This document shows, one piece after another, positions 11,650 to 27,127 of a stretch of DNA of 64,000 nucleotides (position 1 is the first letter of the stretch; each line of letters begins with the position of its first letter). The translations under genes and the position numbers were made by a program. The stretch is from Vampirovibrio chlorellavorus (GTDB lineage Bacteria; Cyanobacteriota; Vampirovibrionia; Vampirovibrionales; Vampirovibrionaceae), in NCBI GenBank assembly GCA_903866275.1, contig CAIPMU010000016.1:62001-126000 (forward strand), read 5' to 3'. A model generated the notes under the pieces. It had not been told where the DNA came from. It saw nothing but the letters and a program-made list of their open reading frames with translations, and searched no databases.

Positions 11650-12775
11650 CACCGAACAGGCACCCATCCGGGTGTTATTGGTGGATGATGATGAAGATGA
11701 GTACATTATTACTCGTCGAATTATTGCTGAAGTTGAGGGACGCAAGCACACGCTGGACTGGGCATCCAGCTATGAGGAAGGGTTGGCCATCATTGAGGAA
11801 GGCCGCCATGATATTTATCTGATTGATTACCAGCTGGATGAAAAAAACGGCCTGGATCTCCTTCGGGAAGCCATTAGCGATGGGTGCACCCAGCCCATGA
11901 TTCTGCTCACCGGACAAGAGGACCGGGAAGTGGATATTCAGGCCATGAAACTGGGCGCCTGGGATTATCTGGTCAAGGGACGGATCGATGCGTCCGCGCT
12001 GGAGCGGGCCATTCGCTATACGCTGGAACATAAAAAAGTGGTGGACGTGCTGCTGGAAGTCCAAAAACAGCGCGAAAAATTTGTCGCCACCCTAACGCAC
12101 GATTTAAAGACCCCCATTAAAGCCGAGTTCCGAATCTTTGAGTTGCTGATGCAAGAGCGTTTTGGCCCACTCACAGAAGATCAGCAGTTGGTCATTCACG
12201 AAATGCTGCGCTCCAACCGGTTTATGTACCAAATGGTTGATAATTTACTGACCGCCTTCAAGTTTGAAGAGGGCCAAATGGTGCTGCGGATGGAAACCCT
12301 GGACCTGAACGAACTGGTCTCGGATGCCATATCGATTGATCTCAGCGGGCTGGCGCAAGAAAAAGATCAGATTCTGACACTGTCCTTGCAGCCCGGCATC
12401 CCGTTAATTCCGGCGGATGCACTGGAAGTGAAGCGCGTGATTTACAATCTGGTGCAGAACGCCATTAATTTCACCCCCAAAAAGGGAAAAATTAAAATCA
12501 ACACCGAATTCAGGGATCATAAAGTCTTTGTGAGTGTGGAAGACACCGGCCCCGGCATTGAAGAGGTGATTCAAAAAAATCTCTTTGCCCCGTATGCCTC
12601 GATGTCCAAACGGTATCGCCATATTGGCACAGGTCTGGGTCTCTACATCTCCAAAAAAATTGTGGAAGCCCATCAGGGTGAGTTAACAGTAGACAGCCGA
12701 CTGGGTGAGGGCAGCCGCTTTACGTTCACCTTGCCCGATCAGCAGAGTGAAAAAAGTCGTCAGGTCAGCCTGTAA
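11609..12775 (+). CDS. REC-HisKA-HATPase hybrid histidine kinase
   Basis: N-terminal REC (VLLVDDDEDEY), H-box FVATLTHDLKTPIKAE, HATPase N/G boxes (NLVQNAINFTPKKG, VEDTGPGIE, GTGLGLYISKKIVEAHQG). TTG start overlaps the upstream gene by 41 bp. Confidence 0.9.
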   Translation: MKLSSCLQIETSTDTEQAPIRVLLVDDDEDEYIITRRIIAEVEGRKHTLDWASSYEEGLAIIEEGRHDIYLIDYQLDEKNGLDLLREAISDGCTQPMILLTGQEDREVDIQAMKLGAWDYLVKGRIDASALERAIRYTLEHKKVVDVLLEVQKQREKFVATLTHDLKTPIKAEFRIFELLMQERFGPLTEDQQLVIHEMLRSNRFMYQMVDNLLTAFKFEEGQMVLRMETLDLNELVSDAISIDLSGLAQEKDQILTLSLQPGIPLIPADALEVKRVIYNLVQNAINFTPKKGKIKINTEFRDHKVFVSVEDTGPGIEEVIQKNLFAPYASMSKRYRHIGTGLGLYISKKIVEAHQGELTVDSRLGEGSRFTFTLPDQQSEKSRQVSL

Positions 12776-13114
12776 AGCAGCTGAGCCCCCTCATTCGCCG
12801 CGACATCGCCATCAAGGGCCCCTGAGCTCAACGCCAGAGTTAACAGAGAAACGCGCTCTAGCCAGCGTCCATCTAAAAACCGCTGCAGGTTCGTGTCAAA
12901 CAACACCAGGTGGCTAGCATGACTTTCCCTCCAATGGGGAATAGTGAGGCTATTTATGAGTTGTTATATTAATCACTGAAGGGATAAACATCCCCTCTCT
13001 TTATCACAGAGAACGATGTACTGATTTTTTGCTTCAGACGATTCAAAACGTTTGCCCTGAAGCTCCAACAACCTACGCGAGTGACTTTGTAACCACCCAA
13101 ACGGAGGCCAATTT

Positions 13115-13357
13115 GTGATGTCCATGTCGAATATCGAATACTCTTCCCTGAAAAAGAAAGCCGGATTGCATAATCGAGGCTACATTTCCCCACAACAGGA
13201 ATTTGACTTTGATGTAGACACGTTCGAGGCCGCCGGTTCTGACAAAAGCGATGCGGACAGCATCGATCTGGAAAACAGCTTTATTGGAGGCTCTCCAGAA
13301 CTGTTACACCAGAATGGGTTTGGCGAGTATTACGCCTTACAGGATTATGAAGAATAA
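13115..13357 (+). CDS. Small acidic hypothetical protein
   Basis: 80 aa ORF followed by a weak terminator-like hairpin (ccttc..gaagg-ctttttc) at about 13383-13407. Confidence 0.5.
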   Translation: MMSMSNIEYSSLKKKAGLHNRGYISPQQEFDFDVDTFEAAGSDKSDADSIDLENSFIGGSPELLHQNGFGEYYALQDYEE

Positions 13358-13426
13358 TCCCCCAGATTTTACTGAAAAATACCTTCCTTATATATAGAAG
13401 GCTTTTTCACGATACAAGCCAACCGG

Positions 13427-13465
13427 ACAGGCCAGTGAAATGCGACAGGCAGGACACTGGCCTGT
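13427..13465. terminator. Inverted repeat between convergent transcripts
   Basis: acaggccagtg (13427-13437) / cactggcctgt (13455-13465), 11-bp perfect stem; U-tract poor. Confidence 0.4.
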
Positions 13466-13484
13466 TTGCATTCTTATCTCAAAA

Positions 13485-13800
13485 TTACAGCAGGCGAATG
13501 GTTTCAAAGACCGCAACAGGTTCTAATCGACCCTTGAGCCTCACCATCCCACACGAACGGTGCAATACGATCCTTAACCTATCTATATGTGCTGACCGAG
13601 ATCAGAATCTGCGAGCCAAACTCCCGATTGAGGCTTTCCAGTCGGACGGCCACGTTCACCGCATCGCCAATAACCGTCAAGTCCATAAAATCATCGGACC
13701 CAATGTGGCCAACCGTGACCGGACCAATGTTGATCCCCATCCCGATACTGATGGGCTAAGCGCCTTCCTGTTGAAGCCAATGCTTCTGCTACCGTTTTTT
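13485..13800 (-). pseudogene. Decayed class III adenylate/guanylate cyclase catalytic domain (C-terminal part only)
   Basis: Minus strand reads QKHWLQQEGA*PISIGMGINIGPVTVGHIGSDDFMDLTVIGDAVNVAVRLESLNREFGSQILISVSTYR*, then in another frame VRLKGRLEPVAVFETIRLL*. In-frame stops and a frameshift. Confidence 0.85.
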
Positions 13801-13972
13801 TGAACTCTACAGTGTGGAGGTACCGGTAAAAGCCCGGAAAACAGGCTCCCAGACTAAACACAGGACAAATAAGATTTCAGGCAGATTAGTCAGCCATCAG
13901 GACACGCTATCCTCCATCGTGAAAAATCTCGATTTTACCCTTGCCTCTGCAGCCCCCTTGAAAAGAACGCCC

Positions 13973-15355
13973 TTACCGGGGATACCAATCCAGATAACCC
14001 TGATGATAGGCTTTGGCCACCGTTTGGGCAAAGTTCCGGGGCTTCTTCCAGTACCAGCTGTGCGCGTTAATAAACGTCGCGCCACCCCCCAGATAGAGGT
14101 AGTTCTCCACAAAGCCCCCGTTTAACACTGGCGGCTTCGCCAGCCGGGTGCTCATCACACTCAGGATTCTGGCCTTATTGGGCATGGGGAGGGCAATAAA
14201 GTCATCCCAATGGTTTACATGCAACCACACCATATTGTGAGACAACATGTAACTCACCATGCTGGAGACCAGATAGCTCTCATCTTTCTCCGGGTTCGCC
14301 ACCAAGGAATAAAACAAAGCCAACGGGCTCCCAAAAGTAACCATCCCGCGCACTTTGTTTTCCGGTAAACAGTACTGTCGGGTATAATCGGGCAGACTGG
14401 TCATCCAGTTCCGGCGATAAATCGCCAGCAGGTCCGGGGGAATTTGTGGCTCAATCCCGGAGAAAAAAGGCGCCAACTTGCCCTGTGCATCATAACGAAT
14501 GCCGGAAGAACTCAACAGGGCTTCCAGGCAGGTGTACTGCTCACCTTTCTCTTGCAATTGGGCCATCACCACGGGATCAGCCCGCAAATCCCTGGCGAAA
14601 TCCTGAATATTCAGGTACGGCAAACGATACATCAGAAAATCGAAGGCCACCAGTGAACCTGCACTATGGCCCATCAGCATGATCGGTTGATGACCAGTGT
14701 GGCTGACCGCATCAAACAGCTCACCCACAATGGCTTTCTTGTTGGTTTGTTGCTCCACCCAAATCGCATCATGCAGAGTATAAGCCAATTTCTCTCGGGC
14801 CCGTTCGCCCAACCTTAACCATCCTCGACTCAGCAACGGATTGGCAATATTTCGTTTTACAGCGGCAATGGACAAATGACTTTTATCCCCCCAAAAGAAG
14901 TTAATTGTCTGTGGTGAAATGCCCAGGGTGCCCTTCTCTAAAAGATGTTCACTGGCCAAGGGTTCTTTGATCAGCGCCGCCCGAATGTAAGGGTGCAGTT
15001 TGGTCACCCGCCCATTAAAAGCATCCTGACTGGTGGGCGAATTCTGGTTGGTGCCGTGAATATACACAAACTGCAGTTCCTCTGCATACACACCAACTGC
15101 TCCAAAACTTAAAAACGCCCCAACCAGCATTCCCAACCCGGCCCGGACTTGATTCCACCTACTGAATCTCCTCACAGCGAAACCCCTCTCATTGATCACC
15201 CTCTGAATCCCACAGGCTAATGCAAAGTCCGAGCCAACGCCATTCCACAGGCTGGCATCCATCCTAATCACTCGACCACTGGACAAGCCCAAACCACCAG
15301 CCAAAATGCCTGCAGGCGGGACGCAGCGCCAACGCATACTGGTTTTTCTGTTCAA
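13973..15355 (-). CDS. Secreted alpha/beta-hydrolase (lipase/esterase-like)
   Basis: FVYIHGTNQNSP, nucleophile elbow LMGHSAGSLVAFDF, later HVNHWDD. Signal-peptide-like segment suggests a start nearer VRRFSRWNQVRAGLGMLVGAFLS. Confidence 0.7.
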   Translation of the reverse strand: MNRKTSMRWRCVPPAGILAGGLGLSSGRVIRMDASLWNGVGSDFALACGIQRVINERGFAVRRFSRWNQVRAGLGMLVGAFLSFGAVGVYAEELQFVYIHGTNQNSPTSQDAFNGRVTKLHPYIRAALIKEPLASEHLLEKGTLGISPQTINFFWGDKSHLSIAAVKRNIANPLLSRGWLRLGERAREKLAYTLHDAIWVEQQTNKKAIVGELFDAVSHTGHQPIMLMGHSAGSLVAFDFLMYRLPYLNIQDFARDLRADPVVMAQLQEKGEQYTCLEALLSSSGIRYDAQGKLAPFFSGIEPQIPPDLLAIYRRNWMTSLPDYTRQYCLPENKVRGMVTFGSPLALFYSLVANPEKDESYLVSSMVSYMLSHNMVWLHVNHWDDFIALPMPNKARILSVMSTRLAKPPVLNGGFVENYLYLGGGATFINAHSWYWKKPRNFAQTVAKAYHQGYLDWYPR

Positions 15356-15403
15356 AAAGCGTTACACTGGGCAAAGTCTTGAGATTGGCGAAAGGGAGGG
15401 GTC

Positions 15404-15775
15404 ATGGCACCCAAAAAAACCAGCGACGATAGCTCCAAAGCAGGCACAAAAAAGTCGGTGAATATTGAGCCACAATCCGATAGCGGTTTTGTGCAGAAAC
15501 AAGGCTCTGCCCAACGTCAAAAAAAACGCTTTGAAAGCGATCTGGCAGCCGAGATTATTGATGAACTCTACCCCTTGCTACTGGATAACTGCACCGATGA
15601 AGACGACGAAGTAGACACACAGGCAGTCTTTGAGAGCCTGGCGGGGTTATTGGGTCTCTTTATCGCGGATTATCACGAGGGGTATGGCCCCCAAAAAGCA
15701 CAGGCGGCCTTTCAGGATCTGATCGATCTGGCCGTGAATTTATATGAAGAACGCGTTGCCAACGCCACTGAATAA
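15404..15775 (+). CDS. Hypothetical acidic protein
   Basis: 123 aa ORF, divergent from the hydrolase, plausible codon use. Confidence 0.6.
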   Translation: MAPKKTSDDSSKAGTKKSVNIEPQSDSGFVQKQGSAQRQKKRFESDLAAEIIDELYPLLLDNCTDEDDEVDTQAVFESLAGLLGLFIADYHEGYGPQKAQAAFQDLIDLAVNLYEERVANATE

Positions 15776-15807
15776 ACCGCCCCAGTTCTGAATTGAACAA
15801 TTGACCT

Positions 15808-16848
15808 TCAGCCAACTGAATCCAGCGATTTACCCGAATAAAACGCGCGCTTCTCAAACAGGGGCGATCGATACAGACTCTCAACCGTCACGGTTTTGAT
15901 TGGGTCCACGTGCGGCACCTCTTCCTGCAGCACTGTAGGATGCTGTTTGGCAATATGTCTTAACATCGGATGAATATTAATCACTGCAGGCTCAAACAAA
16001 TGATCGATGGCCTCAATGACTTTAGCCGGATCATAACTACCAATTTTAGCAGCGACCACATTCATCAACACCCATTTATTGCAATTTAAACTATTTCTAG
16101 AATTATAGGTCGTCACTAAATTATAATCCCGGGTGAAGTATAACTGTTTGTATTGACCTTTCAGCATCGCCTCTCGCATAGCCTTACGCAGTTTAAGTTC
16201 CGGAATCATCACCAGTGCATCCCAGTCATAATTGGGCTGTGAGTAGAAAAAATCCACCGGATCATTACGCCATAAATCCGCGCGCTGTGGATAAGCGCAA
16301 TCATTATTGACGAGATCATAAATTACCCAGCGTTTGAGCTTGGGATCATAGATCAGAATCCCCGCATGCTCCATATAGGTGCGATCCTGCGTTTTTGTTT
16401 GCCAGGTCCCACCACGGGCAACCACGGCCACGGAAACCTTTTGCTTCTGCATTTCGGAGATCAACCAGTCAGAGAGTTGCTGAGCCATTTCCAGCTTTTT
16501 TTTGTCTGTTCTTTGCACCACCCTGAACGCCAGTGGTTCATCCGGATCCAGAGACAGCGGCATTGGACATGGCTTTTTAAGCTGCAGATTTTTGATGGCA
16601 AAACTGATTGGCGCCAGCGCCTCCAGAAAACGCTGTTTCAGATCAAAACCACCGTTACCCATGCCATGCGGCTGTACCTGCCAACGTCTGGCATGGACCA
16701 ACTGATTGGGCACCTCCTGCGATAAGGCAGCCCGCCTGACATGCGTATCTCCTATCACGCCAGGCGTTACTCTGGAACGCGGTGTGCTCTCCGCTTTTTT
16801 TGCAAACACGAAAGCGGGAGATTGAGTAGAACAGATCGATGCTATCAC
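15808..16848 (-). CDS. Exported hypothetical protein, DUF2145-like (papain-fold-like) region
   Basis: RGGTWQTKTQDRTYMEHAGILIYDPKLKRWVIYDLVNNDCAYPQRADLWRNDPVDFFY ... NSLNCNKWVLMNVVA: H and C spacing recalls DUF2145. Confidence 0.5.
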   Translation of the reverse strand: MIASICSTQSPAFVFAKKAESTPRSRVTPGVIGDTHVRRAALSQEVPNQLVHARRWQVQPHGMGNGGFDLKQRFLEALAPISFAIKNLQLKKPCPMPLSLDPDEPLAFRVVQRTDKKKLEMAQQLSDWLISEMQKQKVSVAVVARGGTWQTKTQDRTYMEHAGILIYDPKLKRWVIYDLVNNDCAYPQRADLWRNDPVDFFYSQPNYDWDALVMIPELKLRKAMREAMLKGQYKQLYFTRDYNLVTTYNSRNSLNCNKWVLMNVVAAKIGSYDPAKVIEAIDHLFEPAVINIHPMLRHIAKQHPTVLQEEVPHVDPIKTVTVESLYRSPLFEKRAFYSGKSLDSVG

Positions 16849-17152
16849 CCTAACTCTCCTTATAGAAACCCTGGCATCGAAACCCTATTGAATCACTTGA
16901 ATTTGAAGATGGCTTGATTATATATCAATATCCAGAAAAATGAAGGCCTCAATATCAAAAAAATATAAACAATTATTATTGTGCTTCCAATTTAATTGTT
17001 GATAGAACCATTTGACACTATCACGTGAAACCTATACAATAACTGAATTAATTTTATTTCATGACATGCACTCAGTCTATCTACAATTCAAGTGACTCAA
17101 GTGGGTAATCGACATACAAAATTGAATAGGTAGCTTCTTTTAAGGGGGTTTC

Positions 17153-17983
17153 ATGCCGTTAAGATTGCTTTCTGCTCCAACAAGAGCAGGCATTAGTGAT
17201 TCCAAAAATAATCTAGCCAGCAGCAAGCCTGTGCCGACACGTCCAAAATTGTTGCAAGGTTTAAAAAAATCTGCCCATGCACATCCCAAACATCATTTCA
17301 GTCGGCACGCCCAGCCACCCAGCTGTACCATCAGTTACGATGAAGCAGAACTATTGGCCAATCATGCCATTCTGGATGCCCCGCTCGACAACAAGCAGGA
17401 TATTTTCGCCCGGATTGAATCCCCCTCTGATATTTTAAGATCCAATCTGGCAGCAGCAAACTTACTAGAGGTAATCAATCAGGGCGCCACCGAAGAAGAG
17501 CAACGCCGCAATCAGCTTAAAGCACTCTTCCTATGGGATAAGGTGGGCCAGGCTGTTGTCAATGAAACCTTGAAAACATGGCAAGATAAAATCAACTGCG
17601 CCAAAGAAATTATCCAGTGCTTGCCCGAAGAAATGGCCAGCCTGGTTAAGCCCAAGCCGCCCAAAAATCTAACACCTTTGAGCAAGCATGACGCCTACCT
17701 GTTGGCAGAAAGCATCCTGCTCAAAACACCGCTCGAAAACGCCCCGGCCATTCTGAGACAGGTTGTTTCGGCACGAGATCTGGTGAAGGTTGATATTGCG
17801 GCCACCAAAATACTGGCCAAAATGAACGAAAACAAATCAGAAGACGAGATACGGGTAAACAATTTACGCTATTTGTTTCTGATGCATAAAATTGGGGTGC
17901 AGGTCACAGAAACCATGCTCACCACCTGTGAGGACTACCGCATGTATGCCGTGCATCTTTTCAAGACAATCATCGGTAAATAA
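17153..17983 (+). CDS. Hypothetical protein with two tandem ~100-aa repeats
   Basis: Repeat 1 SYDEAELLANHAILDAPLDN...RNQLKALFLWDKVG; repeat 2 SKHDAYLLAESILLKTPLEN...VNNLRYLFLMHKIG. Confidence 0.7.
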   Translation: MPLRLLSAPTRAGISDSKNNLASSKPVPTRPKLLQGLKKSAHAHPKHHFSRHAQPPSCTISYDEAELLANHAILDAPLDNKQDIFARIESPSDILRSNLAAANLLEVINQGATEEEQRRNQLKALFLWDKVGQAVVNETLKTWQDKINCAKEIIQCLPEEMASLVKPKPPKNLTPLSKHDAYLLAESILLKTPLENAPAILRQVVSARDLVKVDIAATKILAKMNENKSEDEIRVNNLRYLFLMHKIGVQVTETMLTTCEDYRMYAVHLFKTIIGK

Positions 17984-18246
17984 TTCTCAGTGTTCCGCTT
18001 TTATTTCTTATAGTCCTCTCTAAAATTCAATGGTTTCATATCATTCAGATATTTTTCTGACGAAAAATATTGCGCCTCAATCAATCAGCAGCTGCCGAAG
18101 GATGATTCTGACGTGTCAAACAAACCCTTAAACCAGCCAAAATGGCGCAGTGTCAACCCTGATACGCTTCATAGAACCTGGCATACTACCGCCTGGTGGA
18201 CTCGTGGGGTCAGCCGAATGATGCGGCTCAGGATAGGGCGCTAGAA

Positions 18247-19344
18247 ATGCCGCTTTCCCTGAAGCCAGTCTCTGCAGCTTTACACAAGCCCGGTCAGGCA
18301 GTGTCTCGATCAGTCCTACACAGGGCCTCGCTGACCCCACCCAAAATTACCGATCGCTTTGTATCCAGCGCCAGAAAAACCCAAAGCGCGATACAATCCA
18401 GCGCGCCACATGCAGAATTTGCCACCACATATCCACCTTTCAGTAAAGCAACTTTACCCCGACTAAAAGAATGGCCGGGGAAAAAAATGATTCCATCCAT
18501 CCAGGCCCCCCTTCGTCATCACGAAGATGGCCAGTTGGAGGAATTGAGCCATGAACTGGCCAGTCACTACCAGTTACATCTGGCCGGAGCGCACCAACAA
18601 ATGACCGAGTTGCTGGGATCTTATGGCACGGTCACCGGTCGCGCCAAAACCGCAGACTCCATTTTAGATAAACTGACAGATTGGCACGTCAGCCCACCTC
18701 CAAAAAACGCCCCCTTAATTTCCGATGGTATTGGTACACGGCTGATTCTATCCCACGGGCATCCCGGAAAGGTGGAGGCCGTTGTGCAAAAAATCAGCCA
18801 GGCCGTGCAAAGCGGAAAACTGAAAATTAAATCCATCCATAATTATCGGGGAAAACACACCGAAGCCTATCTCCAGCCGGAACAAATCCAAAGCTTAATC
18901 AAAGCCACCCAACACGCCAAGCAGGAACGTCACTTCATCGGCGTCAACAATGGCCCCGAGGCAATAAAAGCATCGGGTTACACGGCACTGCAGCTGAAAC
19001 TCATCTATCACAATGGCATCCACGGTGAGCTACAGGTTCGTGGGCCTCTGGTGAACGCCGTCGCGGAGCGGGAGCATCAACTCTACGCCATTCGGGAAGG
19101 TAAAACGCAACAGCCGGCCAACCCGTTTCGCACCACCCGCCCGCTGGAAAAAACGCTCCAGCAGCTTTCATCGAGTGAACAGGCCGATTACCTCTCCTAC
19201 ATACATCAACATTACGAAAATGCCCGCAAACTGGAAATGGGGCCGGTTATCGTGGAAACGCCGCAGTTTCCCAAATCACTCAGCCATACCCCCGCTCTCC
19301 AGTGGACAGAAACCTTGCCTGTCAGAGCAAGCCATCGACGCTGA
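18247..19344 (+). CDS. RelA/SpoT synthetase-domain-like nucleotidyltransferase (standalone)
   Basis: GRAKTADSILDKL, ISDGIGTRLIL, ASGYTALQLKLIYHNGIHGELQVRGPLVNAVAEREHQLY match the order of (p)ppGpp synthetase motifs. ATG at 18247 (track start GTG at 18196). Confidence 0.7.
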   Translation: MPLSLKPVSAALHKPGQAVSRSVLHRASLTPPKITDRFVSSARKTQSAIQSSAPHAEFATTYPPFSKATLPRLKEWPGKKMIPSIQAPLRHHEDGQLEELSHELASHYQLHLAGAHQQMTELLGSYGTVTGRAKTADSILDKLTDWHVSPPPKNAPLISDGIGTRLILSHGHPGKVEAVVQKISQAVQSGKLKIKSIHNYRGKHTEAYLQPEQIQSLIKATQHAKQERHFIGVNNGPEAIKASGYTALQLKLIYHNGIHGELQVRGPLVNAVAEREHQLYAIREGKTQQPANPFRTTRPLEKTLQQLSSSEQADYLSYIHQHYENARKLEMGPVIVETPQFPKSLSHTPALQWTETLPVRASHRR

Positions 19345-19577
19345 AAGGATTGGCACGGGCTCACCATGGTGTAACGTTCACGTTACACTATCGGCTTAAA
19401 CAGGAAATACTTGCCAGCCTTTTACTTTTTATGTATTTACTAGTAACAGTACGTTATACAGGTTTTTTATCCGAATGAACTTTGAATTAGTCATCAGCGT
19501 TTGTTGTACGGGCCTCTTCCGGAAGGACAGGCCAGATTGCTGTACGAATTAAATCCCTGATCACTGAATCAAACAGC

Positions 19578-19617
19578 AAAAGAGTCGACCTTCCGTAAGA
19601 GGCCGACTCTTTTGTTT
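19578..19617 (+). terminator. Intrinsic-terminator-like hairpin immediately upstream of the 19645 ORF
   Basis: aaaagagtcg (19578-19587) / cgactctttt (19604-19613) with T-rich tail, and no plus-strand gene ending just before it. Confidence 0.7.
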
Positions 19618-19644
19618 TACCTGCTTTTTAGGACTTCTATCGCC

Positions 19645-21162
19645 ATGTCAGTAGCTCCCACGCTTCCAGTATCACCCGGACCCACGCACTACCGTTCTCT
19701 CCAGAGCGCAACACAGCCAGCCCAGTCACGCCATCGCGAGGTGCAATTTCAGGGGGTGGGTGATGCAGTGTCCTCTTTTATCAGCCTGATTGACCGAAAT
19801 CGGGCCATAGAATTGGCGGCTTCTGACGGGTTGGGCATGCTGGCCCCGAGAACCGCAATGGCCACAGGGTTTCGCGGCGTTGATGATGGCCGGGAAACCC
19901 TGATTCGGGAAGGGGCGGGCCTGTTCTGCGTGGCCCTGCTGGCGGGGGTGAGCAACCAGTTCATGACCCGTGTTCTGGGGAATCGGGTGAATTTTTACAA
20001 TCCCCACGGCACGCCAGCCAGAGCCTGGATTGGCGCCAAAACCCTGAACATATACAGCCAACTCTATCATCAGGCCCTCCAGACAGCTCAATCACCACAG
20101 GATGCGCGCGCGACTTTTATTGAAAGCGTTCTTAACGGCTTAGAATCCGGCGATCGACAATTAAGCATCGATGGCGTATTAAGCAACCTCAAAACACTGA
20201 GCCAGAAACCCGAAAACAAAGGCATCGTGGAAAAAGCCATGACCCAGATGCTCACCGCGAGCGACGGCAAACCCGTTGCTCCAACCGTGCTAGAGGCCCA
20301 CTTCAACGCCCTCACCGAAGGAAAAACGACAACCCTGCGCGACACCTTACTGACAAAGGGCTGGGGAGAACTCAGCCAAACGGGCAAGCAGGAACTGCGG
20401 CAATGGTTCCAGCCCATAAACCCCAAGAGCGACCCATTGAAAGGAACGCAAAATTTTGACTGTCAAGCCTGGGAACGCATTGCCGAATTGGAACAACAAC
20501 AGCCTCTGGCCAATCGTGATGCAAAATTTATTGAAGAGCGCCTCAAACTCAGCCTGACACATTTGGGCAGCGAAGACGCACGTTTCATCAAAGCGGTTGA
20601 TGAACTGGCTCTGAATCACGGGCTGACCAGCGTGGTGCATTTAAAAAGAACCCCGCATGCTGAGGCAAACGCGACGAAACATGGAGAAAAAACAGTCCTG
20701 CTGGCGGAGCAATCGCGACAAACTTTGCTGAAGGAGCTGAAATATTTTCTGGAACACTTTGTAGATCGGGCCAGTGATGTGGCCCAAACCGCACAACCCC
20801 AGTGGGCCCAGCAACGGGCGCTGATTCAACAAACCCTGTTTGCACCCGCCAAATCAGGATGGCGGGGGTTGATTCCCCACGCTGAGGAGGGGCTGGTCAC
20901 TGCCGCACTCAAGAGCAAAACGGGCTATACGGTCATTCCCATTGGCATTGCGATTGCAGCCAACTTCATCACCACGTTCATGAACAACTACATCACGCAG
21001 AAAAAACATTTTGGACGCGTCTTCTTCCCCGGCGAAGAGGCGGCACTGAAGTTATCCACTCAGATGACCAACGCCCTCAGCAGCCACAACGTGAATCCAT
21101 TCTCCGGGATTTCCCAGACCCCCTTCAATCCTGCGCTTTCCCAGAAAGGTTTTATCGCATGA
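19645..21162 (+). CDS. Hypothetical membrane protein A of a coupled pair
   Basis: ORF track starts at TTG 19612 inside the terminator; ATG 19645 preferred (MSVAPTLPVSPG). Hydrophobic GLFCVALLAGVSNQF and C-terminal VIPIGIAIAANFITTFMNNYITQKK. Confidence 0.7.
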   Translation: MSVAPTLPVSPGPTHYRSLQSATQPAQSRHREVQFQGVGDAVSSFISLIDRNRAIELAASDGLGMLAPRTAMATGFRGVDDGRETLIREGAGLFCVALLAGVSNQFMTRVLGNRVNFYNPHGTPARAWIGAKTLNIYSQLYHQALQTAQSPQDARATFIESVLNGLESGDRQLSIDGVLSNLKTLSQKPENKGIVEKAMTQMLTASDGKPVAPTVLEAHFNALTEGKTTTLRDTLLTKGWGELSQTGKQELRQWFQPINPKSDPLKGTQNFDCQAWERIAELEQQQPLANRDAKFIEERLKLSLTHLGSEDARFIKAVDELALNHGLTSVVHLKRTPHAEANATKHGEKTVLLAEQSRQTLLKELKYFLEHFVDRASDVAQTAQPQWAQQRALIQQTLFAPAKSGWRGLIPHAEEGLVTAALKSKTGYTVIPIGIAIAANFITTFMNNYITQKKHFGRVFFPGEEAALKLSTQMTNALSSHNVNPFSGISQTPFNPALSQKGFIA

Positions 21163-22079
21163 GTACCCTGACACCCTGGTCATCGGCCAAGAACATGCAG
21201 CGAACGCCCGCATTACCGGCTGCAGGCGCCCTTAAAACCGGCCATGCAGACGTTAAGTTCGGAGGATTAGCCCCACACGTCAGCCCGGTTCAAGCCCGAC
21301 AGTGGGTAGAACATCTCGACTTTACCAGCCTTGGGACCTCGCCGGTCAAACAGATTGGCCTGATTTTTTCCAGCCTAATCACCTGGCGGTTACTGGCCGC
21401 CAATGAACGCCGCCGGGCCAGCGTATCCAAACGCTGGAACGAATTGCGCGAAAACCTGATGCGCGACCTGTTAAGTTTCGCCTTCTGGTTTTTGGGCGTG
21501 CCTGTTTTGCAACGCCTGTATTTGCGCACCGTGGCCAAGCGAAATCCCCAACTGCAGAATATCTTAATTCAGCGAAGCCAGGCGCAAGCCACAAATGGCA
21601 AAGGGGCACTTCACTGGTTAAAATCCAACAACCCCATTCATAACTGGTACATCCCCAGCAGCCAGCAGGTCAAGGATCAAATGCATCAGGCCCTGCAAAC
21701 GCTCAGCAAGGCAGGGGTCAAACCGGAAGCCGACGTCTATCGCCAGACTGAAGCCACTTACCTCAACCTCATCAAACACCGGAATTTGGCCACGGCGTTG
21801 GGGTTGGGTTCTACCATTCTCCTGTTGGGCGTGGGCATTAACCTGCTGAATTTTTACCTGACCCAGAAAAATATTATTCAGAATCAACAAGGCCCACAAC
21901 CCTTTCCCCCAGCCACTTTACCAACGATGCCAAAAGCACTAGTTCCACAACCCTTGTTTTCCCAGCAATTTAGCGGCCAGTCCGCCACCCCGTTGACGCC
22001 CCGGCCCGCCCTTGCCTTTTCGGCCCAGGCGTTAACGGGGACTTTTGTCCCCCCGGTCAATCCCTTTCTGCGACGGTAA
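21159..22079 (+). CDS. Hypothetical membrane protein B of a coupled pair
   Basis: ATGA overlap with the upstream stop; LLSFAFWFLGVPVLQRLYL and TILLLGVGINLLNFYLTQK segments. Confidence 0.7.
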   Translation: MSTLTPWSSAKNMQRTPALPAAGALKTGHADVKFGGLAPHVSPVQARQWVEHLDFTSLGTSPVKQIGLIFSSLITWRLLAANERRRASVSKRWNELRENLMRDLLSFAFWFLGVPVLQRLYLRTVAKRNPQLQNILIQRSQAQATNGKGALHWLKSNNPIHNWYIPSSQQVKDQMHQALQTLSKAGVKPEADVYRQTEATYLNLIKHRNLATALGLGSTILLLGVGINLLNFYLTQKNIIQNQQGPQPFPPATLPTMPKALVPQPLFSQQFSGQSATPLTPRPALAFSAQALTGTFVPPVNPFLRR

Positions 22080-22395
22080 ACTGTTGTTGAACTACGAATT
22101 TAATTGTTCGACTTCAGTATGACTGGCTTCCTCAGAGGTTGGGCATTGCCCAGTTTTTGGCCAGCAGGATAGAGAAATCAAAGAGAAAACTCAATCCGTC
22201 AGACTGATGGAAATTTAAATTATTCCAACCTGTCAGCCAACAATGATTTAATCAACAAAGTATCATTCTGTTTATTATAGGGTACGATTTGCCTGACAGG
22301 TCAATGAATAAATAGGTACTGAAAATAATTAAGTTGCTCAATCCCAAATCCATCGGTATACTGAGCAGGTGAGTGTCTAGATTAGGTGAGTGAGC

Positions 22396-23355
22396 ATGCA
22401 GAAACCCTCCCTTCAGAATATAGCCAAGATCATGGCTTGCCTGATATTTTCAGTGGCTTTGTGTGTTTCTGTATTGGCCTGCTTTAGTGTTGGGAATGCG
22501 AAGTTTGAATTACTGTGTCACTTCAAAATGCATTATTTTATTCTGAGTTTAATGCTATTAGTCATTTCACTATTCAAGAGAAAACCCGCTTGGATTGTGG
22601 TTGCTTTGTCATGGTTCATTTTCAACACACTGCCCGTCATTCCTTATTATCTACCTGTAAAGCCCGCTGAAACAGCCTTGCACCGCAAGATAAAACTCAT
22701 GCAGCTCAATGTGTTACTGACGAATCAGAGTCATGACAAAGTCCTCGCCCTGATTCAAAAAGAAAAACCCGATATTATTGGGCTGGAAGAATTCACCTTT
22801 CAATGGGCGGCAAAGCTAAAACCCATTGAACAAGAATACCCCTACCATGTCATTGAGCCTCAGAATTGGGCTTTTGGCGTTGCTCTATATAGCAAATTTC
22901 CCTTAACCGATACGCATATTAAAAACTTTGGCCCAGTCTTGAAAAATCTGCCCGCAAAGATACCCTCAATCGTGACATCGTTTCAATTGGAGAAACAACC
23001 CGTAACACTCATTGTCACCCATCCGGTTCCACCCACACTGTTTGACTTGAGAAACAGCGAACTTGACGGTATGGGGCAAGCCAGAAGCCGATTCAATAAA
23101 AATCTGATCATCATGGGGGATCTGAATTCAACCCAATGGTCGCCTTACTTTCAGAAGTTACTCCAGCAAACCGGACTGCGGGATAGCCAGCTTGGTTTTG
23201 GGGTTCAGCCCTCCTGGCAATCCACGGACTGGTTATTGCGCATCCCGATTGATCACATTTTAATCAGCCCCAATATCGCCGTCCTCAATCGATATATCGG
23301 CCCTTCCATCGATTCGGATCACTTGCCTGTTTTCGCGGAAATTGCCTTAAAATAA
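22396..23355 (+). CDS. Endonuclease/exonuclease/phosphatase family protein with N-terminal membrane segments
   Basis: MQLNVL, KPDIIGLEEF, IIMGDLNST, SDHLPVFAEI motifs of the EEP superfamily; hydrophobic N-terminus. Confidence 0.85.
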   Translation: MQKPSLQNIAKIMACLIFSVALCVSVLACFSVGNAKFELLCHFKMHYFILSLMLLVISLFKRKPAWIVVALSWFIFNTLPVIPYYLPVKPAETALHRKIKLMQLNVLLTNQSHDKVLALIQKEKPDIIGLEEFTFQWAAKLKPIEQEYPYHVIEPQNWAFGVALYSKFPLTDTHIKNFGPVLKNLPAKIPSIVTSFQLEKQPVTLIVTHPVPPTLFDLRNSELDGMGQARSRFNKNLIIMGDLNSTQWSPYFQKLLQQTGLRDSQLGFGVQPSWQSTDWLLRIPIDHILISPNIAVLNRYIGPSIDSDHLPVFAEIALK

Positions 23356-23375
23356 GCAGCTTTCCCAGTCATCTG

Positions 23376-23831
23376 CTAAAACTGTTGAATTAAAAACACG
23401 CCACCCATCACCAGAACGGCGCCCAGAAAACGCAATAGCGACAGCGGATGCTGGGGAAAACCCAACACCCCAAAGTGATCAAAAATCAGCGATGCCAGCA
23501 TTTGCCCGGCAATCACCAGGCTTAACATGGTAGTCGCACCCAGTCGAGGCGCTAATAATACCAGTGAGGTCACAAACAGCGCGCCAAAAAAACCACCCGT
23601 CCACATCCACCAGGGAATCCCTGCCAAACGGGAAGCTGAAGGCCAAACGGTGGGATTGATCAGGGTAAATACACCCACGGACAATAAACCAATCGAAAAG
23701 GACGCCAGACTGGCCAGATACGGCTCGCCCAGATTTTTGCCCAATTGGGAATTCAGGCCCGCTTGCGTGGGAACCGTCATGCCCACCAGAATAGCCGCCA
23801 GCATTAATCCGTAAAGCCCTGTTGATTCCAC
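23376..23831 (-). CDS. DMT-family transporter, YdcZ/DUF606-like
   Basis: 151 aa, four or five hydrophobic helices; MTVPTQAGLNSQLGKNLGEPYLASLASFSIGL. Confidence 0.8.
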   Translation of the reverse strand: MESTGLYGLMLAAILVGMTVPTQAGLNSQLGKNLGEPYLASLASFSIGLLSVGVFTLINPTVWPSASRLAGIPWWMWTGGFFGALFVTSLVLLAPRLGATTMLSLVIAGQMLASLIFDHFGVLGFPQHPLSLLRFLGAVLVMGGVFLIQQF

Positions 23832-24092
23832 GCAATTTGTCCTTAATCATCAGTGTCGTCAGGCTATTGTAGTACAGACAAGCTGCGCTTCAAAGTCCCT
23901 TTCAGGCAGATTGACTTTGCACTGGTTTATTTATACGATACATGGGCCTTTCGAGCACGATTAAAACAACTTTACTGGTAAAAATGGGTTTCAAAAAGAG
24001 CAATTATTCACTAACCAGCCCTAACCCTGCTTTCTCCACACCCAGCCGACACGACCAGAAATTCCAGCGACATTCGCCTGAGGAGGCCCGAA

Positions 24093-25646
24093 GTGATTGA
24101 GCATTTAAAAGATAACTGGCAGGCTGAACGCTTGCAATCGTTGACCGCGACCCTTCAGCAGGCAGCCTCTGAGACGAGCAAGCCGATTGTGGTTCAGAAT
24201 TTTATTGACGGAAAATGGCTGCCTTCACGGGGTCAGGAAACCGTGGAAATCATCAACCCGGCCAATGGCGCTGTTTTGGGCTATACCCCATTGGGCACCG
24301 CTGAAGATATTGAATTGGCCGTGCAAGCGGCTAAAAAAGCATTCAAAACATGGCGTGAAACCCCCGTGATTGATCGGGTCCAAGTACTCTTCCGCCTGAA
24401 AACCCTGCTGGAAGCGCATGTGGAAGAACTCGCCGAACTCATCACTTTAGAGAACGGGAAAACCATCGGGGAGGCCCGTGGTGATATTCGCCGGGGGATT
24501 CAAATGGTGGAAACCGCTTGCGGCATGCCGCTCATGCTCAAAGGGCAGGTTTCGGAAGACATAGCAGCCGGGATCGACTGCCACGCCATTCGTCGCCCGA
24601 TGGGGGTTTTTGCGGCCATTACCCCCTTTAACTTTCCGGCGATGGTGCCCTTCTGGTTCTGGCCTTATGCCATTGCCTCGGGCAACACGTTTGTGCTAAA
24701 ACCCAGCGAGCGCGTGCCTCTCACCCAAGTTCGCCTGTTTGAACTCATCGAGCAGGCGGGCATGCCCAAGGGCGTGCTCAATATGGTTCAAGGCGGTAAA
24801 GACACCGTCAACGCGCTCATCGCTCACCCGGACATTTCTGGAATCTCCTTTGTGGGCTCCACGCCGGTTGCCAAATATGTCTACCAGACCGCATCCGCAA
24901 ACGGCAAACGGGTACAAGCCCTGGGCGGAGCCAAAAACTTTATGGTGGTACTCCCCGATGCCCAAATGGACGCAGCGGTACGCACCGTGCTGGATTCCTG
25001 CATTGGTTGTGCCGGTCAGCGTTGCCTGGCGGGCTCGCTCATTTTAAGCGTGGCCGAAGCGTATCCTGCCATTGAAGCCGGTATTATCAACACCGCCAAA
25101 CACATTCAGGTGGGTAATGGACTGGATCCCGCCACCGGCGTGGGGCCGCTCATCTCCCAAGCAGCGCTGGATCGGGTGAAAGGGCTCATTCAATCCGCCA
25201 TTGATGAAGGTGCCACGGTGCTGGTGGATGGTCGCCATTCGGAGAATCTCCCAAACCAAGGCTACTACCTTGGCCCGACGGTGATCACGGGCATTCAACC
25301 CCATATGCGGATTGCTCAGGAAGAAGTCTTCGGGCCGGTCATCCTATTGGGCCAAGTCGGCACGCTGGATGAGGCCATTCACTGGCTGAACAGCTCCGAG
25401 TTTGCCAACACCACGACCCTCTTTACCGCGTCCGGCGCGGCGGCCCGCAAGTTCTCCTACGAAGTCGATCCCAGCATGATCGGCATCAATATTGGCGTGC
25501 CCGCCCCGATGGCCTTTTTCTCCTTCGGGGGGAGCAAGCACTCCTTCTTTGGGGACATCAAGGCACACGGGCAAGCGTCCGTGGACTTTTACACCGACAC
25601 CAAGGTCACGGTAGAACGCTGGTTCAAGGATTCCAGTATCTGGTAA
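24093..25646 (+). CDS. mmsA: CoA-acylating (methyl)malonate-semialdehyde dehydrogenase
   Basis: ALDH family; ITPFNFPAMVPFWFWPYAIASGNTFVLKPSE, ALGGAKNFMVVLPDA, GCAGQRCLAGS, IGINIGVPAPMAFFSFGGSKHSFFGD. Confidence 0.93.
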   Translation: MIEHLKDNWQAERLQSLTATLQQAASETSKPIVVQNFIDGKWLPSRGQETVEIINPANGAVLGYTPLGTAEDIELAVQAAKKAFKTWRETPVIDRVQVLFRLKTLLEAHVEELAELITLENGKTIGEARGDIRRGIQMVETACGMPLMLKGQVSEDIAAGIDCHAIRRPMGVFAAITPFNFPAMVPFWFWPYAIASGNTFVLKPSERVPLTQVRLFELIEQAGMPKGVLNMVQGGKDTVNALIAHPDISGISFVGSTPVAKYVYQTASANGKRVQALGGAKNFMVVLPDAQMDAAVRTVLDSCIGCAGQRCLAGSLILSVAEAYPAIEAGIINTAKHIQVGNGLDPATGVGPLISQAALDRVKGLIQSAIDEGATVLVDGRHSENLPNQGYYLGPTVITGIQPHMRIAQEEVFGPVILLGQVGTLDEAIHWLNSSEFANTTTLFTASGAAARKFSYEVDPSMIGINIGVPAPMAFFSFGGSKHSFFGDIKAHGQASVDFYTDTKVTVERWFKDSSIW

Positions 25647-25693
25647 ACTATTCCCCGAAAGCATCTAAAATTCATGAGAAGAGGTAGTTTCGC

Positions 25694-27127
25694 ATGACCA
25701 CTCGCACCTTACTCATTCAAAATGGAACCGTCGTGACCGCCACCGAGCACATGGTGGCCGATGTCTACATCGTGGGCGAGACGGTGCAAGCCATCGGGCG
25801 GCAGCTCCCAATCGCACCCGAACAGGTCGATACAGTGATTGACGCCACCGGGCATTACCTCTTTCCGGGCGGGATTGACGCGCACACGCACATGGAACTA
25901 CCCTTTATGGGCACCTTTGCCAGCGACACCTTTGAAACCGGCACGCTGGCGGGCCTCCATGGCGGCACCACCACCATCGTGGATTTTGCCATTCAGCGGC
26001 AGGGCGATTCGCTCAATGCAGCGCTGGATGATTGGCATCGCAAGGCCGATGGCCACGCGGTGTGCGATTATGCGTTCCATCTGGGGGTGACTGATTTTAA
26101 CCCCAACACCCGCGCGGAAATTAAAGACATTATTACCCGGCGCGGTGTAAGCTCTTTTAAAACCTTTATGGCCTACAAAGGCGCCCTGATGGTGGATGAT
26201 CGCCAGATGCTTAGCCTGATGAACGAGGCCGGGCAGTTTGGCGGCATGGTCACCGCCCACTGTGAAAACGGCGATATGATTGATGAACTGGTCACGCAGC
26301 ACCGCGCAGCCGGGCATACCGCCCCTCGCTATCACGCCATTTGTCACCCGGAAATCGCCGAAACTGAAGCGACGGGCCGCTTTATTGATCTGGCCTGGCA
26401 AGGAAAGCACCCCTGCTATGTGGTGCATTTAACTTGTGAAGGCGCGTTAAACCGAGTGCGGGAAGCCACCCGTCGCAATCAGCAAGTGAACGTGGAAACC
26501 TGTATTCAGTACCTATTACTGGATGACAGCCTCTACGACAAGCCCGGTTTTGAAGGCGCGAAATGGGTATTCAGCCCGCCCTTGCGTAAACCAAAAGACC
26601 AGGAAGCCCTGTGGAGCGGCATTCAGCAAGGTTTAATTCACCATGTGGCCACCGATCACTGCCCCTTCTGCATGGATCAAAAACGCATGGGTGAAGCGGA
26701 TTTCAGCAAAATTCCCAACGGCGCACCGGGCATTGAAAACCGGGTCGAATTGCTCTATTCCGAAGGCGTGGCCAAAGGTCGCATTTCGCTGAATACCTTT
26801 GTGGATTTAATGTCCACGCGCGCCGCCAAAATATTCGGCATGTTCCCCAAAAAGGGTACCATTGCGGTGGGTTCGGATGCCGACATTGTGATTTTTAATC
26901 CCGACGTGCAGCATACACTGTCAGTCAAAACTCAGCACATGAACGTGGATTATAACGCCTATGAAGGCTGGCCCGTCCAAGGCAAAGTCCGCACGGTGCT
27001 GCTGCGTGGCACCGTGGCGATTGATCAGGGTGAGGCCAAAATCGGCAAAGGATTTGGTCAGTATATTGCCAGAGCACCCTACCAGCAGGCATTAAGCAAT
27101 CCCTTGCAGGTGCTGACACCGGCCTGA
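25694..27127 (+). CDS. hydA: Dihydropyrimidinase
   Basis: FPGGIDAHTHMELPFMGT, SSFKTFMAYKGALMVDD, VATDHCPFCMDQKRMG, HTLSVKTQHMNVDYNAYEG. Confidence 0.95.
   Translation: MTTRTLLIQNGTVVTATEHMVADVYIVGETVQAIGRQLPIAPEQVDTVIDATGHYLFPGGIDAHTHMELPFMGTFASDTFETGTLAGLHGGTTTIVDFAIQRQGDSLNAALDDWHRKADGHAVCDYAFHLGVTDFNPNTRAEIKDIITRRGVSSFKTFMAYKGALMVDDRQMLSLMNEAGQFGGMVTAHCENGDMIDELVTQHRAAGHTAPRYHAICHPEIAETEATGRFIDLAWQGKHPCYVVHLTCEGALNRVREATRRNQQVNVETCIQYLLLDDSLYDKPGFEGAKWVFSPPLRKPKDQEALWSGIQQGLIHHVATDHCPFCMDQKRMGEADFSKIPNGAPGIENRVELLYSEGVAKGRISLNTFVDLMSTRAAKIFGMFPKKGTIAVGSDADIVIFNPDVQHTLSVKTQHMNVDYNAYEGWPVQGKVRTVLLRGTVAIDQGEAKIGKGFGQYIARAPYQQALSNPLQVLTPA

What the first reader, a model, noticed from the sequence alone, without database searches (positions are those of the whole stretch)
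18247..19344. Standalone RelA/SpoT-synthetase-like protein with a long disordered N-terminus
Seen: GRAKTADSILDKL, ISDGIGTRLIL, KIKSIHNYRG, SGYTALQLKLIYHNGIHGELQVRGP and AEREHQLY, in the order of the (p)ppGpp synthetase fold. The presumed catalytic Asp (D in DGIGTR) and Glu (E in GELQVR) are retained. The usual YxSLH is YTALQ and the usual QxRT is QVRG. There is no HD, TGS or ACT domain. About 120 residues of Ser/Pro/basic sequence precede the domain. It could be a small alarmone synthetase, a toxSAS-type toxin that modifies tRNA, or an exported effector.
Basis: partly seen in the sequence, partly recalled or inferred. Interest (0 to 1): 0.72.

Follow-up and report, generated by a model that had tools for sequence, protein, structure and literature searches.

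The report
Divergent stand-alone RelA/SpoT-type alarmone synthetase
A predatory relative of the cyanobacteria (genus Vampirovibrio) carries an extra, apparently intact alarm-nucleotide-making enzyme from a large and so far undescribed family of its class, whose gut relatives often wear the same domain on giant proteins with a small partner gene next door.

Summary
In detail: 18247-19344 (+) encodes 365 aa with every motif named, in RelA/SpoT synthetase order. PF04607 matches below its cut-off (20.7 vs 27 bits), but relatives pass it. An AlphaFold2 model (domain pLDDT about 80) matches RelP, RelQ, CapRel, RelSeq and the exported synthetase SaEAS (prob 1.00). Residues 1-92 are predicted disordered. 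Across about 56 relatives the residues for ATP binding, catalysis and acceptor stacking are essentially invariant, so the enzyme is probably active. A 38-80-residue stretch with an invariant Tyr lies between the NY and SGYT motifs (about 10 residues in Rel) and marks a new clade, found here only in Vampirovibrionia (227 of 385 genomes). Most likely it is an accessory alarmone (ppNpp) synthetase beside the normal bifunctional Rel. Unexpected: in gut relatives the domain often sits on proteins of up to 4366 aa and is followed by a conserved ~140-aa partner gene (50 of 53 partner hits lie downstream of an enzyme domain); the window copy lacks it.

The parts
18247..19344 (+). gene for the 365-aa RelA/SpoT-type synthetase (ATG start preferred; in-frame GTG at 18196 and ATG at 18487 are alternatives)
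18247..18522 (+). residues 1-92, predicted disordered, Ser/Pro/Ala/Lys/Arg-rich, net charge +11, no hydrophobic signal-peptide core
   Evidence: pLDDT <50; composition
18523..19245 (+). residues 93-333, RelA/SpoT nucleotidyltransferase domain plus C-terminal helix
   Evidence: AlphaFold2, Foldseek, PF04607
18640..18672 (+). RAKTADSILDK: R132, K134, S138, K142, donor-ATP site; R and K invariant in all 56 aligned relatives
   Evidence: residue roles by analogy with FaRel2 (PMC11782079)
18724..18741 (+). DGIGTR: D160 (metal-binding) and R165; D invariant in relatives
18841..18972 (+). NYRG...YLQPEQI... stretch between NY and SGYT (38-80 residues in the family, about 10 in the genome's own Rel) with invariant Tyr Y208 (18868-18870)
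18973..18993 (+). SGYTALQ: acceptor-stacking Tyr Y245 invariant; the usual His is Gln in 46 of 56 relatives, His in 10
19027..19044 (+). ELQVRG: catalytic E261 and Q263 invariant; the usual Thr is Gly in 44 of 56
19063..19086 (+). AEREHQLY: conserved E/H/Y segment following the core
19171..19236 (+). C-terminal helix (309-330) with conserved Y315, Y318, Y323, R327, E330

Best explanation
The gene encodes an accessory, probably active RelA/SpoT-type 3'-pyrophosphokinase of a Vampirovibrionia clade. Steps inferred from the fold: R132/K134/K142 hold donor ATP, D160 and E261 hold Mg2+, the acceptor base stacks on Y245, and the beta-gamma pyrophosphate of ATP is moved to the acceptor's 3'-OH. The acceptor is most likely a guanine or adenine nucleotide, giving (p)ppGpp or (p)ppApp. 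The stretch with invariant Y208 between the NY and SGYT motifs probably shapes acceptor access or gates activity. The organism keeps a separate bifunctional Rel, so this is not its housekeeping stringent factor. Shown: domain, fold, motif retention, purifying selection in relatives, clade and distribution. Inferred: catalysis, acceptor, role of the insert, physiological role.
For: Motifs in order. PF04607 sub-threshold here, above cut-off in relatives. Family profile finds RelP 6fgk at 2.2e-9, then Rel/RelQ. Model matches RelA/SpoT synthetases, prob 1.00. R, K, D, Y and E active-site residues invariant in about 56 relatives. Basic residue at Tyr-4 (own Rel: K in PKSNLY) kept in 43 of 56. dN/dS 0.06-0.17 in relatives. 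Own genome has a 741-aa Rel with an HD hydrolase motif, read by eye.
Against: PF04607 score of the protein itself is below the curated cut-off. YxSLH is YTALQ and QIRT is QVRG, both in the acceptor region, so acceptor specificity may differ. The nearest relative is only 35% identical. Present in only 2 of 5 genomes of the genus. No biochemical evidence exists.
Confidence: 0.6

Rival explanations
1. toxSAS-type toxin: it pyrophosphorylates the 3'-CCA of tRNA, or makes (pp)pApp, and poisons the cell unless held by an antitoxin.
For: Same fold as CapRel and Tas1. Gut relatives have a conserved downstream ~140-aa partner gene that could be an antitoxin. One genome keeps a partner copy without an upstream enzyme gene.
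Against: No partner family member was found in the window's genome or genus. The 17153 protein is not cognate. Profile scores for CapRel and Tas1 are far weaker than for RelP/RelQ. A basic residue at Tyr-4 is kept in most relatives, whereas the acceptor-site positive patch is reduced in tRNA-modifying FaRel2 (PMC11782079). No PADLOC hit.
Confidence: 0.15
2. Exported alarmone synthetase (EAS) or injected effector, delivered into algal prey or rival bacteria by way of the disordered N-terminus.
For: EAS enzymes on many secretion routes are known (PMC12691689). V. chlorellavorus is proposed to invade prey through a T4SS (PMC4451040). Relatives carry modular N-termini shared with other proteins. 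The relative in NCIMB 11383, which has three VirB4 genes, also has a Ser/Pro/basic N-terminus.
Against: No Sec-like signal. No VirB4 family match in this 97.7% complete genome. No secretion genes were recognised beside the gene. The N-terminal start is uncertain.
Confidence: 0.2
3. Catalytically dead or purely regulatory RelA/SpoT-like domain.
For: Altered acceptor motifs (YTALQ, QVRG).
Against: Metal- and donor-binding residues are invariant across about 56 relatives; purifying selection in relatives.
Confidence: 0.08

Closest known systems
Small alarmone synthetases RelP (SAS2) / RelQ (SAS1)
   Same: Stand-alone synthetase core without HD, TGS or ACT; best profile match (6fgk, 2.2e-9) and among the best structural matches.
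   Different: 38-80 residues between NY and SGYT, YTALQ for YxSLH, QVRG for QIRT, disordered N-terminal extension, 9-17% identity in the structural alignments; RelP/RelQ chains are 209-237 aa.
Exported alarmone synthetases (EAS; SaEAS, VpEAS, Apk1/Tas1; mBio 2025, PMC12691689)
   Same: Same catalytic fold (8vx3); not a housekeeping Rel; some relatives carry modular N-termini.
   Different: No Sec-like signal, and none of the five export domains listed there was recognised by Pfam; Cyanobacteria and Melainabacteria are not mentioned in that paper's main text.
toxSAS toxins (FaRel2, CapRel)
   Same: Same fold (7ztb); a partner gene exists in gut relatives.
   Different: No antitoxin here; weaker profile similarity; the partner of the gut relatives matches no Pfam family or PDB chain.
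TIGR04562/TIGR04552 RelA/SpoT-like family
   Same: Another divergent RelA/SpoT-like protein of the same genome, C16:134766-135977.
   Different: Distinct family; the window protein matches neither model.

Membership tests
RelA/SpoT synthetase domain (PF04607) | Profile match at or above gathering score | tested here: inconclusive
   20.7 vs 27 bits for this protein; three relatives at 29.5-32.2
RelA/SpoT synthetase domain (PF04607) | RxK, DxxGxR, Tyr acceptor motif and ExQ catalytic motif in order | tested here: met
RelA/SpoT synthetase domain (PF04607) | Synthetase fold | tested here: met
   AlphaFold2 and Foldseek
Small alarmone synthetase (RelP/RelQ) | No HD, TGS or ACT domain | tested here: met
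Small alarmone synthetase (RelP/RelQ) | Canonical YxSLH and EIQIRT acceptor motifs | tested here: not met
   SGYTALQ and ELQVRG
Small alarmone synthetase (RelP/RelQ) | (p)ppGpp synthesis | not testable with these tools
   needs an enzyme assay
toxSAS toxin-antitoxin | Adjacent cognate antitoxin or immunity gene | tested here: not met
   17153 protein found without the enzyme in G001 and G003 and unlinked in G004; the gut partner family is absent from the genus
toxSAS toxin-antitoxin | Toxicity and modification of tRNA or adenine nucleotides | not testable with these tools
   needs expression and assay
Exported alarmone synthetase | Sec signal peptide or known export domain | tested here: not met
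   no hydrophobic N-terminal core (SignalP itself not available); no export domain in the Pfam scan
Exported alarmone synthetase | Protein found outside the producing cell | not testable with these tools
   needs fractionation

The most novel reading that the evidence does not exclude
The window gene is the stripped-down member of a class-wide system of Vampirovibrionia: RelA/SpoT synthetase domains with a gated acceptor site, mounted on modular delivery proteins of up to 4366 aa and held by a dedicated ~140-aa partner of a new family, used by gut and predatory members against hosts, prey or rivals.
Probability: 0.25. Interest if true: 0.75.

Novelty: new variant of a known kind. Interest (0 to 1): 0.45.

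Why it matters
RelA/SpoT enzymes are split into housekeeping, toxic and exported kinds by a few acceptor-site features. This clade keeps the catalytic core, changes the acceptor motifs and adds a long stretch next to them, and is spread over more than half of the sampled Vampirovibrionia genomes, many with a conserved partner gene. It offers a new place to test what decides alarmone versus tRNA substrates, and a lead to how poorly cultured gut Melainabacteria interact with their neighbours.

Tried and rejected
17153 neighbour as antitoxin: rejected. Partner gene near the window copy: none. Phage, plasmid or viral origin: no tblastn or pattern relatives (one search gave one insignificant hit at E 0.7); BFVD fold matches include RelA/SpoT domains of uncultured phages but at large rmsd. 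PHROGs: nothing for the window protein beyond chance, one weak match for a relative. PADLOC: no hit for the window protein, one weak match for a relative. NCBIfam: none for the family. RNA elements: no Rfam hit in 12000-26000. A single-sequence PDB search with the full protein gave only antibody chance matches, aligned to the disordered N-terminus. Partner structure: single-sequence AlphaFold2 model unusable (pLDDT 47), so not searched. T4SS in the window genome: no VirB4, although NCIMB 11383 has three.

Full report
Observation.

Fold. Pfam PF04607 aligns over positions 1-106 of 113 but scores 20.7 bits against a cut-off of 27. Relatives in the same class reach 29.5, 29.8 and 32.2 bits. A profile of 15 sequences finds RelP (6fgk, E 2.2e-9), Rel and RelQ; CapRel (0.11) and Tas1 (1.7) are far weaker. 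AlphaFold2 with four sequences gives domain pLDDT near 80 and residues 1-92 below 50. Foldseek returns RelA/SpoT synthetases at the top, including RelP, RelQ, CapRel, RelSeq and the exported SaEAS, with probability 1.00; TM-scores normalised by the target reach 0.66, rmsd values are high (4.6-10 A), as expected from a model with a disordered tail.

Active site. Over about 56 aligned relatives R132, K134, D160, Y208, Y245, E261 and Q263 never change, and R165 changes once. The His of YxSLH is Gln in 46 and His in 10; the Thr of QIRT is Gly in 44, Ser in 7, Thr in 5. Four residues before the acceptor Tyr a Lys or Arg stands in 43 of 56, as in the genome's own Rel (PKSNLYQSLH). Between the NY motif and SGYT the family has 38-80 residues, Rel about 10. 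This stretch with an invariant Tyr is the mark of the clade. dN/dS among close relatives is 0.06-0.17. These counts include some near-identical sequences.

Distribution. With a four-sequence profile 227 of 385 Vampirovibrionia genomes match, most in one family coded f6. A phylum-wide draw of 294 genomes gave 101 matches, all in the class. A pattern scan of 85,462 species found only three loci, all from this class, but that scan reaches close relatives only, so presence in other phyla is not excluded. Within the genus 2 of 5 genomes have the gene, so it is accessory there.

Unexpected context in relatives. In gut members the domain lies on proteins of about 320 to 4366 aa, and the gene is often followed, 0-66 bp downstream where the gene end was seen, by a 138-149-aa gene of one family. 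A search with that family gave 53 hits in 195 genomes; 50 have an enzyme domain upstream on the same strand and contig (48-5266 bp from the domain end, the long distances being giant genes with an internal domain). Of the other three, G108 is at a contig start, G056 lies among genes that look flagellar (hook-length control) and is probably a false match, and G080:C2 is a partner with no enzyme gene upstream. Pfam and PDB do not recognise the partner. Its role (antitoxin, immunity protein, chaperone) is open. On a tree the partner's presence is clustered; the window protein pairs with the NCIMB 11383 protein (support 94) and both lack it. Deep branches are unresolved, rows from truncated giant genes were scored as partner-less, and the Rel outgroup row was poorly filled (18%).

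N-terminal modules. A hydrophobic module shared by L047 and L048 and a short helical module of the giant proteins both occur in other proteins of the class that differ in the rest of their sequence. This fits a modular repertoire of delivered or surface proteins; it is not proof of export.

Partners and export for the window gene. The 17153 protein, a two-repeat protein by eye, is limited to the genus in the genomes searched, occurs in G001 and G003 without the enzyme, and is on another contig in NCIMB 11383. No Sec-like hydrophobic core is present. VirB4 (PF03135) is absent from this genome and present three times in NCIMB 11383, whose T4SS was proposed as the predation device (PMC4451040).

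Interpretation. The protein works like a RelA/SpoT pyrophosphokinase with high probability. Alarmone synthesis is favoured over tRNA modification by profile kinship and the retained basic residue at Tyr-4, but the acceptor motifs are altered, so specificity is open. It is not filed as RelP/RelQ, toxSAS or EAS, because a defining feature of each was tested and not met. It is placed as a new clade of the RelA/SpoT synthetase superfamily. Literature searches found no description of it, within an open-access library only.

Noticed in passing
L060:6413-6844, L049:5069-5488, L048:2501-2947 and about 20 other loci: Conserved ~140-aa partner gene directly downstream of the RelA/SpoT-like gene in gut relatives; no Pfam or PDB match.
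   Followed up: partly
L129:4652-5047 (G080:C2): Orphan copy of the partner gene with no enzyme gene upstream, followed by a 302-aa gene and an acetyltransferase gene whose likenesses lie downstream of complete pairs elsewhere.
   Followed up: partly
L004:8766-9977 (C16:134766-135977): Another divergent RelA/SpoT-like protein (TIGR04562/TIGR04552, E 1.7e-90) about 54 kb from the window gene.
   Followed up: partly
window 19645-21159 and 21159-22076; several relatives and partners: Recurrent short N-terminal motif of the type VxFxG / NF[KR]G (VQFQG, VKFGG, NFKG); modest excess in the first 40 residues over later blocks, with a loose pattern that also catches unrelated segments.
   Followed up: partly
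L135-L142, L146, L148-L150: Two N-terminal modules of the enzyme's giant or mid-size relatives recur on otherwise different Vampirovibrionia proteins.
   Followed up: partly
window 17153-17983: Genus-restricted 276-aa protein that appears to hold two copies of a ~100-aa helical repeat; its homologue in NCIMB 11383 lies beside an endonuclease/exonuclease/phosphatase-like gene, as a similar gene lies at 22390-23355 here.
   Followed up: partly
BFVD A0A6J5S4E3, A0A6J5Q8J2, A0A6J5MFM5: Fold matches to RelA/SpoT domains of long phage proteins, some annotated with other domains such as ART-PolyVal; large rmsd, relation not established.
   Followed up: no
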